Below the pieces are notes generated by a model. It saw only the letters and a list, made by a program, of their open reading frames with translations, had not been told where the DNA came from and searched no databases. This document shows positions 1 through 33,870 of a stretch of DNA of 33,870 nucleotides, piece by piece. Numbering within the stretch: the stretch's first letter is position 1; each line of letters begins with the position of its first letter. The DNA is from Ruminiclostridium sp. Its GTDB lineage: Bacteria; Bacillota; Clostridia; Oscillospirales; Ruminococcaceae. The stretch lies in NCBI GenBank assembly GCA_017635095.1, contig JAGBMA010000093.1, positions 1-33,870 of the forward strand. The letters are read 5' to 3'. The translations under genes and the position numbers were made by a program.

Positions 1-106
1 CTATCCACTTTATGCCGCTTTGTATGCGCGCGTCCTGCGCGCTTTTGGCGGCAATACCACGGCTTCCTGCCGTGACCGTCTACTGCGTCAAACCTCCTAA
101 CCGGGC
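1..106 (-). repeat. GGA-loop double-hairpin repeat, copy 1 (cut by window edge)
   Basis: These 106 bases are the exact reverse complement of 33730-33835. Read on the minus strand from 106, the copy starts GCCCGG, then forms hairpin A (arms 69-74 and 58-63, loop AGGAA) and hairpin B (arms 37-42 and 26-31, loop AGGAC). Hairpin B sits inside an outer stem GCCGC/GCGGC. The copy runs off the window before its 3' tail, which copies 2 and 3 keep. Structure and repetition are seen directly. The function is unknown. Confidence 0.85.
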
Positions 107-116
107 GCCAGCCCGG
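101..116. repeat. Palindrome at the junction of two divergent repeat copies
   Basis: CCGGGC (101-106), spacer GCCA (107-110), GCCCGG (111-116). Each arm is the first six bases of one repeat unit, so copies 1 and 2 lie head to head with a 4-nt spacer. The 106-bp identity with the right end of the window stops exactly at 106. Confidence 0.8.
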
Positions 117-253
117 CTGCGTCGGCTTTCCTTGTATCCGATGCCAGAGCAGGATGCTCTGACTATGCCGCCCCAATAGCGCATGGATGCGCTTAATCAG
201 CGGCATAAGAGCTATTCTCATTTTCTCTTTTCAAAGCGGTTTTTAGAGGTACC
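111..253 (+). repeat. GGA-loop double-hairpin repeat, copy 2 (diverged)
   Basis: Same layout as copy 3 but with different stem sequences. It has a GCCCGG start, hairpin A CAGAGC/GCTCTG (145-150 and 156-161) with loop AGGAT, an outer stem TATGCCGC/GCGGCATA (164-171 and 200-207), and an inner hairpin GCGCA/TGCGC (179-183 and 188-192) with loop TGGA. A pyrimidine-rich stretch and the tail TTTTTAGAGGTACC follow. Stem bases change in pairs relative to copies 1 and 3 while the GGA loops stay, which is what a selected RNA fold looks like. With the terminator at 262-297 it could be a small RNA gene; I found no clear promoter. Confidence 0.75.
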
Positions 254-261
254 CTAAAGCA

Positions 262-297
262 AAGCCTGAGTCCTTCTGAACTCAGGCTTATCTTATT
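262..297. terminator. Intrinsic terminator, probably bidirectional
   Basis: A perfect 10-bp stem AAGCCTGAGT (262-271) / ACTCAGGCTT (280-289) has an 8-nt loop. On the plus strand it is followed by ATCTTATTT, and on the minus strand by TGCTTT. It can end the minus-strand transcript from the gene at 402-1937 and any plus-strand RNA from repeat copy 2. Confidence 0.65.
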
Positions 298-326
298 TAA
301 TGTCTGCTCATCAGCCAACAAATTGC
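294..326 (-). repeat. Dispersed 3'-UTR repeat, copy 1
   Basis: 33 bp matching 10104-10136 in inverse orientation with one mismatch. It includes TGATGAGCAGACATTAAA. On the minus strand it lies after the stop codon of the 511-aa gene and just before the terminator, the same order as in the copies at 10087-10136 and 25317-25339. The 5' part of the repeat is at 394-409 (reverse complement ATAAATAATGTGTCCT) and contains this gene's stop codon. The two parts are separated by the hairpins at 340-393. Confidence 0.8.
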
Positions 327-10090: not shown

Positions 10091-10136
10091 ATAATGTTTC
10101 CTTGCAATTTATTGGCTGATGAGCAGACATTAAATA
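10087..10136 (+). repeat. Dispersed 3'-UTR repeat, copy 2 (most complete)
   Basis: A 50-bp unit starting ATAAATAATGTTTCCT, which holds the stop codon of the preceding gene, and ending with TGATGAGCAGACATTAAATA. The first 16 bp match 394-409 and the last 33 bp match 294-326, both inverted, one mismatch each. The copy near dprA (25317-25339) is a shortened version. A terminator follows at once. Confidence 0.8.
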
Positions 10137-31722: not shown

Positions 31723-33678
31723 ATGAAAGAGTTATTCAAAAAACTTGGAGCGCAGATAATCCTGCTCTCCGTCATATCACTTGCATTGACCGTTGCTATC
31801 GTACTTATCACTTCCCTTTCTATGTTCGGCAATTACAATGATTCCATTCTCACAGAACGCGCCCATGTAGGTATGCAGGTACTTGTCAATACATTGGAGG
31901 AAAAGGTCGCATCGCTGGAAAGCACATTCACCACATGGTCGGGCCAGTCAAGCTTCGTTAGTGCCATGACGTTCAACGACATAGGCTTTTTCGAGCGTAC
32001 ATGGAACGAGCTTAAAACATCGGACGGAGACTTCTGCGCTATCGCTAATCCCCGCGGAGGCATGATGTACAAGAGCGACAACTATCCCTTCACTTCCCTC
32101 GACCTGGGCGGTGTTGCAAAGGGTGAGCTGAACATAAACGGCATTTTCCTGCAGGACGATGTTCTTACCGCAGTTTACGCCGGTCAGGTATCCGCAAACG
32201 GCGTCTCCAGTGGCCTTGTTGTCGGGTTCAGGCTCGATTCCACCGACTGGATGGACAATCTGAAAAAGATGATAGACTGTGATACCACCATATTCAAGGG
32301 CAATACCCGTTACTCCACCACTATAGTTGACCCTTCCACAAATCAGCGCATTGTCGGTACGACTATGGCTTCCAATATAGAAAATACCGTCATTAATTCC
32401 CACAGTGACTTTGAGGGTAAAGCCAATATAGTTGGCAAACCGTATTACGTTTCATACAGACCTCTGTATGACTACCAGAACAAGGTCGTAGGCGCTTATT
32501 TCTCGGGAAACAACGCAAGCGCCGCAAATGACGAGTTCTCGCTCGTCATTACGATCTCGGTGATAATCGCACTCACTGCTATCGCTGTTACCGGAATAAT
32601 CGTTTTGATATTCACCCGCCGGAAAGTCGTAAAACCCATTAACATGGTAACGATCCTCGCAGATGAGATGCAGAACGGAAAGCTCAGCACCACCGATGTC
32701 GATTATGAATTTTCCGATAATGAGATAGGCAAGTTCGCAGCCAAGCTCCGTGCGGCCAAGTCCGACCTTAGCAACTGCATATCCGATATATCCGGCATCA
32801 TGCACAATATGTCACAGGGGGACTTTACTTCTTCTCCCGAAGTTGCCTACCCCGGTGATTTTGAAGAGATCAGGAACAGCATTCTCCGTATCGAGAACGA
32901 TCTCGGTCAGACACTCAGCAAGATGAATATGTCTTCGGACGAGGTACTCTCCGGTTCAAATCAGATGGCGGAAGGTTCACAGTCCCTCGCAGACGGCACA
33001 ACCAAACAGGCGGCAGCAATCGAGGAGATCTCCGCTACTATAGCAGATGTTTCCTCAAAGGTAGCTGCAACGGCAAAGAACGCCGCAAAAGCCGGTGAGA
33101 TCTCAAAAGAGACGGAGAACGAGGTTAATCTTCAGGATGCTTCGATCACAAACATGGTCGCTGCAATGAACGAGATAAGCGATACTTCCAGAGAGATCGA
33201 AAAGATCATCAAGACTATCGAGGATATCTCTTTCCAGACCAATATTCTTGCCCTTAACGCCGCTGTTGAAGCTGCAAGAGCAGGAGACGCAGGAAAAGGC
33301 TTCGCGGTCGTTGCGGACGAGGTGCGTAATCTTGCAAACAAATCTGCGGAAGCCGCAAAGAGCACTACCGCACTTATCTCCGCTTCTATAGATGCAGTCA
33401 GCAAGGGCTCGCGCATCGCCGATGAGACTGCGGAATCCATGAAGAAAGTCAAGGAAAAGACAGCAGCCACCGGCGAGCTTATCGTAATGATAGCGGACGC
33501 GAGTGCGGAACAGACGGAAGCTATAGGCGAAATAACCTCCGGAATAGAACAGATATCCCAGGTCGTTCAGATGAACTCCGCCACCGCGGAAGAGACCGCA
33601 GCTTCCTGTGAAGAGCTCAACGGTCAGTCGAGACTCCTCAAGGATCAGGTATCAAGGTTCAGGATAATAGATCAGTAA
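31723..33678 (+). CDS. Methyl-accepting chemotaxis protein
   Basis: 651 aa. One membrane helix (about 11-34), an extracellular Cache-like sensor (about 40-268, with [22 protein letters not shown] near its end), a second helix (about 272-296), HAMP (about 297-350), and the coiled-coil signalling domain with the hairpin tip [20 protein letters not shown] near residue 500. It detects a small molecule outside and signals to CheA/CheW. GGAGG precedes the ATG. It has its own promoter and terminator. No other che or flagellar gene is in the window; the receptor may serve flagella or pili. Confidence 0.95.
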
Positions 33679-33687
33679 TGATAACAA

Positions 33688-33728
33688 ATAACCGTGCAGT
33701 CATGAAAGCGGCTGCACGGTTATTTTTA
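33688..33728 (+). terminator. Intrinsic terminator after the chemoreceptor gene
   Basis: A 12-bp stem ATAACCGTGCAG (33688-33699) / CTGCACGGTTAT (33712-33723), then TTTTAT. Repeat copy 3 begins two bases later. Confidence 0.88.
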
Positions 33729-33729
33729 T

Positions 33730-33870
33730 GCCCGGTTAGGAGGTTTGACGCAGTAGACGGTCACGGCAGGAAGCCGTGGTATTGCCGCCAAAAGCGCGCA
33801 GGACGCGCGCATACAAAGCGGCATAAAGTGGATAGCTCTTTTTCTCTCAAATTGGGTTTTTAGAGGTTCC
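33730..33870 (+). repeat. GGA-loop double-hairpin repeat, copy 3
   Basis: GCCCGG start, hairpin A CACGGC/GCCGTG (33762-33767 and 33773-33778) with loop AGGAA, outer stem GCCGC/GCGGC (33784-33788 and 33818-33822), inner hairpin B GCGCGC/GCGCGC (33794-33799 and 33805-33810) with loop AGGAC, a pyrimidine-rich stretch and the tail TTTTTAGAGGTTCC that ends exactly at the window edge. The first 106 bp equal copy 1 exactly. An AGGAGG sequence lies at 33738-33743 but no ORF with recognisable content follows. Confidence 0.85.

What the first reader, a model, noticed from the sequence alone, without database searches (positions are those of the whole stretch)
33730..33870. A repeated element with covarying hairpins and GGA loops: candidate new RNA (or mobile hairpin) family
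Seen: three copies (1-106, 111-253, 33730-33870) share one layout, hairpin A, then hairpin B inside an outer stem, then a pyrimidine-rich tail ending TTTTTAGAGGT-CC. Stem A is CACGGC/GCCGTG in one version and CAGAGC/GCTCTG in the other. Stem B is GCGCGC/GCGCGC versus GCGCA/TGCGC. The changes keep pairing, while every loop keeps GGA (AGGAA, AGGAC, AGGAT, TGGA). Known: CsrB-type RNAs that sequester CsrA carry CAGGA(U/A/C)G in hairpin loops, and three of the four loops here fit that pattern (CAGGAAG, CAGGACG, CAGGATG). The TwoAYGGAY motif of Clostridia also has GGA terminal loops. Inference: a multi-copy protein-titrating RNA, a variant of a known motif, or a small non-autonomous mobile element.
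Basis: partly seen in the sequence, partly recalled or inferred. Interest (0 to 1): 0.75.

Follow-up and report, generated by a model that had tools for sequence, protein, structure and literature searches.

The report
Jumping DNA with shared hairpin cassette
The repeat is a short parasitic DNA element that most likely borrows another element's enzyme to jump around a rumen bacterium's genome, and it carries a two-hairpin cassette whose shape is kept while its letters change and which also sits in other repeats, so it is a mobile element rather than a proven RNA gene.

Summary
The hairpins are real, but the three "copies" are not three genes: 1-254 are the two inverted arms of one element cut by the contig start, and 33730-33870 is one arm cut by the contig end. 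The element is a MITE ("F1"): ends GGGNACCTCTAAAAACC, 4-bp AT-rich target duplications (68 of 86 exact, shuffled mean 8.2), 182 end hits in the genome against 3 for the control, patchy presence (23 of 71 genus genomes). The same ends flank IS5-family transposase genes elsewhere, so an IS5-type transposase in trans is the likely mover. Its arms carry a ~72-nt two-hairpin module with strong covariation (34 distinct rows, 18 of 18 pairs). The module also occurs outside F1, including in a second MITE family; there the loop is C-ANGAN-G, with GGA in both loops in 1 of 11 rows. csrA is present, beside fliW, but a CsrA sponge is not supported. Few G-U pairs (9 of 583; tRNAs 39 of 420) hint at DNA-level upkeep. 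No Rfam family reached its cut-off. Closest kind: modular MITEs such as BOX. What the module does is open.

The parts
1..254 (.). F1 MITE, two inverted arms; left end cut off by the contig start
   Evidence: Same layout as complete TIR-bounded elements; 1-106 is the inverse of 33730-33835
3..75 (-). two-hairpin module in the left arm (loops AGGAA and AGGAC)
   Evidence: R1 82.9 bits, R2 84 bits
144..215 (+). two-hairpin module in the right arm (loops AGGAT and TGGA)
   Evidence: R1 81.2 bits, R2 67.7 bits; RNA fold z -4.32 for 144-216
238..254 (+). right terminal inverted repeat GGTTTTTAGAGGTACCC
   Evidence: Read; pattern hit
255..258 (.). presumed right half of the target duplication, TAAA (left half lost with the contig end)
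   Evidence: Read; TAAA is one of the duplicated sites; inference for this copy
33730..33870 (+). single arm of an F1 element, cut by the contig end; no left terminal repeat
33761..33833 (+). two-hairpin module (loops AGGAA and AGGAC)
   Evidence: R1 82.9 bits, R2 84 bits; RNA fold z -3.78
33855..33870 (+). right terminal inverted repeat GGTTTTTAGAGGTTCC, last base lost at the contig end

Best explanation
The repeat is a MITE (called F1 here), a non-autonomous DNA transposon. Its 17-bp inverted ends GGGNACCTCTAAAAACC are those of IS5-family insertion sequences. Most likely an IS5-type transposase supplied in trans cuts at these ends and inserts the element at AT-rich 4-bp sites, which are duplicated (ends, duplications and empty sites shown; mobilisation in trans inferred). 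The element is modular: a core of 157-158 bp, to which a ~72-nt two-hairpin module in either arm and a centre hairpin module can be added. The two-hairpin module is a cassette kept by shape (hairpin A, then an outer stem with hairpin B, loops C-ANGAN-G) and shared with a second MITE family and with other intergenic sites (shown). I infer that it spreads by recombination or template switching between palindromic elements and acts as a folding passenger, like boxB in streptococcal BOX elements, affecting any transcript or single strand that runs through it.
For: 89 deduplicated TIR-bounded elements of 33-398 bp; 68 of 86 with identical 4-bp flanks, re-paired flanks mean 8.2, maximum 18. 182 end hits in the host against 3 for the control; 23 of 71 genus genomes have exact ends, 0 of 24 genomes of other families. 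Two empty orthologous sites. Insertion sequence with identical 17-bp ends and IS5-family transposase, NF033581 272.8 bits against a cut-off of 140, TSD CTCT; intact relative with ends at 2 and 1 mismatches and TSD AATC; exact right end beside a transposase in another family; truncated transposase with an F1-like end in the same genus. Module: 18 of 18 pairs with two-sided change in 34 distinct rows; present outside F1 and in the second MITE family. Few G-U pairs.
Against: No transposase of this kind was found in the host or in G010, which has 134 end hits; the host is a draft. No transposition or transcript was observed. 18 of 86 elements lack an exact duplication. The spread of the module between carriers is inferred, not seen as an event. 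The low G-U fraction rests on related, non-independent rows.
Confidence: 0.85

Rival explanations
1. The two-hairpin module is a functional structured RNA (or single-stranded DNA motif) in its own right, recognised by a protein through its C-ANGAN-G loops, and was captured by MITEs. This can be true together with the MITE explanation.
For: Loops and joints are kept while stems change; 16 of 18 pairs have two-sided changes in the 11 non-F1 rows; a structure-blind search finds hairpin B fully paired at 21 of 235 CACGATG sites, shuffled mean 2.3, maximum 6; sites without an F1 end within 500 bp.
Against: G-U pairs are 9 of 583 paired cells against 39 of 420 in tRNAs of the same loci, unusual for an RNA. 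No Rfam family reached its cut-off. Several non-F1 copies lie in MITEs or other hairpin clusters rather than at a constant gene neighbour. No transcript data.
Confidence: 0.2
2. A CsrB-like sponge: transcripts of the many copies titrate CsrA through the GGA loops.
For: GGA in loop A in 26 of 34 and in loop B in 21 of 34 distinct rows, mostly F1-borne; csrA in the host, 73 bits; a published, untested proposal of CsrA-binding sRNAs in Clostridia (PMC4333381, passages).
Against: In the 11 non-F1 rows GGA stands in loop A in 6, in loop B in 2, in both in 1. csrA lies beside fliW, a protein that in Firmicutes controls CsrA (recalled). No Rfam Csr/Rsm match at the cut-off. The host copies behave as mobile DNA.
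Confidence: 0.06
3. A REP/RAYT- or IS200/IS605-type element mobilised as single-stranded hairpin DNA.
For: Hairpins with kept loops; few G-U pairs; stable DNA folds.
Against: F1 has true inverted ends and 4-bp duplications, which such elements lack (recalled), and its ends match IS5 elements. Not tested for the module on its own.
Confidence: 0.04

Closest known systems
BOX elements of Streptococcus (boxA/boxB/boxC; PMC3049150, abstract and passages seen)
   Same: Short interspersed repeats with inverted ends and target duplications, built from end modules around optional inner modules; in S. suis two end families surround the same boxB module; ends likened to those of an insertion sequence.
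   Different: Different genus, end sequence and module. In BOX the inner module comes in tandem; here one module sits in each arm, pointing outward. Sequences were not compared.
IS5-family insertion sequences (NF033581 transpos_IS5_4)
   Same: Same inverted ends (identical in L229) and 4-bp duplication.
   Different: F1 encodes no transposase; it is at most 398 bp in the elements listed.
TwoAYGGAY RNA motif (RF01731; PMC2864571 and PMC4333381, passages)
   Same: Two hairpins with GGA in terminal loops, reported from Clostridiales; CsrA-site hypothesis in print.
   Different: Not listed in the Rfam scans; loop consensus ANGAN; hairpin B is enclosed in an outer stem; rides in MITEs.
CsrB/RsmX-type RNAs
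   Same: GGA in hairpin loops of the F1-borne versions.
   Different: Two hairpins per module, GGA not kept outside F1, mobile DNA, no Rfam match at the cut-off.

Membership tests
MITE | terminal inverted repeats | tested here: met
   89 deduplicated elements bounded by GGGNACCTCTAAAAACC and its inverse, up to 3 mismatches
MITE | target-site duplication | tested here: met
   68 of 86 exact 4-bp duplications, re-paired flanks mean 8.2, maximum 18; two empty sites
MITE | short, without a gene for its own transposase | tested here: met
MITE | moved by a transposase acting in trans | not testable with these tools
   Inferred from matching ends
IS5-family-related element | same ends as an insertion sequence with an IS5-family transposase | tested here: met
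   L229: identical ends, NF033581 272.8 bits against 140; L297: ends at 2 and 1 mismatches
IS5-family-related element | cognate transposase in the same genome | tested here: not met
   No match in the host draft; only a decayed PF01609 gene with a stop inside
CsrB/RsmX RNA | match to Rfam Csr/Rsm models | tested here: not met
   RsmY only at 8.2 bits, E 9.8, cut-off 57
CsrB/RsmX RNA | GGA conserved in the loops | tested here: not met
   Both loops GGA in 1 of 11 non-F1 rows; typical only of F1-borne rows
CsrB/RsmX RNA | csrA in the genome | tested here: met
   PF02599 73.1 bits, beside fliW
CsrB/RsmX RNA | transcribed and bound by CsrA | not testable with these tools
   No RNA or binding data
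TwoAYGGAY (RF01731) | match to the covariance model | tested here: not met
   Not listed at E up to 5, 10, 5, 2 and 2
BOX element | boxA/boxB/boxC sequences | not tested
   Only the architecture was compared, from paper passages

The most novel reading that the evidence does not exclude
The two-hairpin module is an autonomous kind of genomic unit: a shape-conserved cassette, marked by its C-ANGAN-G loops, that jumps or is copied between unrelated MITE families and plain intergenic sites. That would make it either an undescribed structured RNA or a hairpin mobilised as single-stranded DNA.
Probability: 0.25. Interest if true: 0.7.

Novelty: new variant of a known kind. Interest (0 to 1): 0.45.

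Why it matters
Covariation is the standard sign of a functional RNA; here it sits inside mobile DNA and looks as if it may be kept at the DNA level. That makes the family a test case for telling RNA selection from palindrome upkeep. It also shows two MITE families with different ends sharing one hairpin cassette, outside the streptococcal BOX elements where a similar sharing is in print. Practically, such repeats break assemblies: this contig ends in the element at both sides.

Tried and rejected
Autonomous F1 copy in the host or in G010: of the 134 end hits in G010, 100 were listed. I fetched 19 that had no close partner; one more at the very start of a contig was left out. 16 of the 19 proved to be MITEs with a mutated partner end. 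Three (L202, L205, L214) had no convincing partner end, and I noticed no transposase-like protein in their long frames (by eye, no family search). The other 34 hits were not examined.

PF01609 in six genomes: four matches, one of them a decayed gene beside an F1 copy in the host, the rest without F1-like ends at up to 3 or 4 mismatches. PF13586 in 60 genus genomes: matches in 5, none with convincing F1 ends on both sides. A viral-contig search with the L265 transposase found no relative. Module pattern in viral contigs: none. Window 1-260 in plasmids and phages, distant mode: no match. R2 in 48 loci, most from other families or viral contigs and five from the same genus: only one site, seen twice, at 13.3 bits, E 0.7. 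ANGAN pentaloops as a genome-wide feature: not among the 15 most stem-prone loop patterns in 797 kb (its own value was not printed). RAYT/REP reading dropped for F1 because of the duplications. Literature searches. None of the listed papers names this repeat in title or abstract start; a sequence cannot be searched that way, so this does not show that it is unpublished.

Limits of the counts: alignment A6 used 28 chosen loci; its 38 rows collapse to 34. Non-F1 hits seen elsewhere (two in L190, L195, L174, partial L200, L035:217-289, L427:14456, weak L193) are not in the 11-row count. The alignments were fitted to, and the copies found by, models that score structure. Shuffles treat related copies as independent.

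Full report
WHAT IS THERE. The window is a whole contig, C15 of a 3.83-Mb, 236-contig draft genome. The first 106 bases are the exact reverse complement of 33730-33835. Together with complete elements elsewhere this shows that 1-254 is one element made of two inverted arms, cut by the contig start, and that 33730-33870 is one arm, cut by the contig end.

IT IS A MITE. The pattern TTTTTAGAGGTNCC with up to one mismatch occurs 182 times in the genome, against 3 for the reversed control. Of 86 with both flanks, 68 have identical 4-bp flanks (TATA 15, TTAA 10, TAAA 9, ATAA 9, TTTA 7 and others); re-paired flanks give a mean of 8.2 and a maximum of 18. Of 97 elements of both families with exact duplications whose flanks were joined and searched against the loci, two F1 insertions have an empty orthologous site in another genome of the genus: L078 in L087 (81% over 184 nt) and L345 in L396 (79% over 198 nt). 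The other spanning hits are self-matches or same-place matches of short elements, or belong to the second family. The L345 element, 223 bp, contains the module, so element and module can insert as one unit. Exact ends occur in 23 of 71 genus genomes and in 0 of 24 genomes from other families of the order.

WHO MOVES IT. A viral-contig record (L229) holds a 1,296-bp insertion sequence with exactly these 17-bp ends, duplication CTCT and a 396-aa transposase (NF033581 transpos_IS5_4, 272.8 bits against a cut-off of 140; PF01609 and PF05598). In the same genus, L265 has a truncated relative (38% identical to the L229 protein; 178.6 bits) with an F1-like end, one mismatch, about 105 bp beyond its stop. 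In other families of the order, L271 has a transposase (79% identical to L265's) followed by an exact right end and TAAA, and L297 is an intact element (350 aa) with ends at two and one mismatches and duplication AATC. No homologue was found in the host or in G010. Movement in trans is therefore inferred.

MODULAR BUILD. The core is 157-158 bp (44 of the 89 elements). Larger classes (about 204-225, 256-290, 345-398 bp) add a module in the left arm, the right arm or both, and/or a centre hairpin module between the arms; the smallest are little more than the two ends. In the F1 elements whose ends and module hits I compared, the module points outward in both arms; this was read, not formally counted.

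THE MODULE. From 5 variants a covariance model was built (6 of 20 pairs with two-sided change). It found diverged copies inside and outside F1. A second model from 11 variants (15 of 18 pairs) was run over 830,871 bases and gave 19 hits at E up to 1. Seven of them, 64.3 to 27.7 bits, have no F1 end within 500 bp. Further copies outside an F1 element are in L126 (two), L347, L351, L172, L174, L190 (two), L195 and, cut, L200; in L126, L347, L351 and L190 an F1 element lies nearby but does not include the module. On the fitted alignment (38 rows, 34 distinct) 96.5% of cells pair, against at most 44.9% when partners are slid, and 18 of 18 pairs have two-sided changes. In the 11 non-F1 rows it is 16 of 18 pairs and 186 of 196 cells, shuffled mean 62%, maximum 71%. 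Both models score structure, so pairing is partly built in. A structure-blind check found hairpin B fully paired at 21 of 235 CACGATG sites (shuffled mean 2.3, maximum 6), and at 10 of 18 sites with the 5' joint (shuffled mean 4.2, maximum 7), against 0 of 18 and 0 of 7 sites with control loops.

A SECOND CARRIER. Elements bounded by GGC(A/T)ATACCGCNCAAA (27 found; 11 of 26 with exact duplication, shuffled mean 1.7, maximum 7) also carry the module: L422, L427, L347 and L035, each with an exact duplication, and weakly L193 (18.8 bits). So two MITE families with different ends share one cassette. The transposase of the second family was not sought.

RNA OR DNA. Only 9 of 583 paired cells are G-U, against 39 of 420 in 19 tRNAs from the same loci (Fisher p 1.4e-8, but rows are related). 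RNA under selection usually passes through G-U (recalled), so I read this as a hint that the stems are kept as DNA palindromes, for instance by template switching. RNA and DNA folds are both stable. No RNA data were at hand.

THE CsrA IDEA. csrA exists, next to fliW. A published, untested proposal makes TwoAYGGAY and Bacillaceae-1 CsrA-binding sRNAs (PMC4333381, passages). Over all 34 distinct rows GGA is in loop A in 26 and in loop B in 21, but in the 11 non-F1 rows in 6 and 2, and in both in 1; what is kept is C-ANGAN-G. No Rfam family reached its curated score. The likeness to CsrB loops is best read as a property of one recently amplified version.

COMPARISON. The nearest kind is the BOX element of streptococci: modular, inverted ends, target duplications, inner boxB modules, and in S. 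suis two end families around the same boxB (PMC3049150, abstract and passages). The architecture agrees; the sequences were not compared. I class this as a new variant of a known kind.

Noticed in passing
L005:1500-1849; beside the modules in L408, L174 and L190: The centre hairpin module of F1 (GTCTCCCC...CGGGGAG...CTGACCGACAGAC) also stands beside two-hairpin modules outside F1. In L190 the Rfam family whalefall-1 is listed over it at 23.1 bits, below its cut-off of 37.
   Followed up: partly
window 33730; L003; L016:1501-1641: Three single arms start at the same base (GCCC) instead of with a left terminal repeat; L016 has TTAT on both sides. A single arm may be able to insert on its own.
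   Followed up: partly
L422:9453, L427:14412, L347:84, L035:189: A second MITE family with ends GGC(A/T)ATACCGCNCAAA and 4-bp AT-rich duplications; its transposase is unknown.
   Followed up: partly
window 294-326 and 10104-10136: 33-nt inverted repeat, 97% complementary, not related to F1 as far as seen.
   Followed up: no
window 33690-33728: A terminator-like hairpin with a T run stands between the end of a chemotaxis receptor gene (MCPsignal, 31723-33678) and the element.
   Followed up: no
L107 (G000:C5), about 1450-1890: A decayed DDE transposase gene (PF01609, one stop inside) lies just beside an F1 element.
   Followed up: partly
G092: This genus genome of about 3.0 Mb has 208 exact F1 end hits, the most of the 71 searched.
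   Followed up: no
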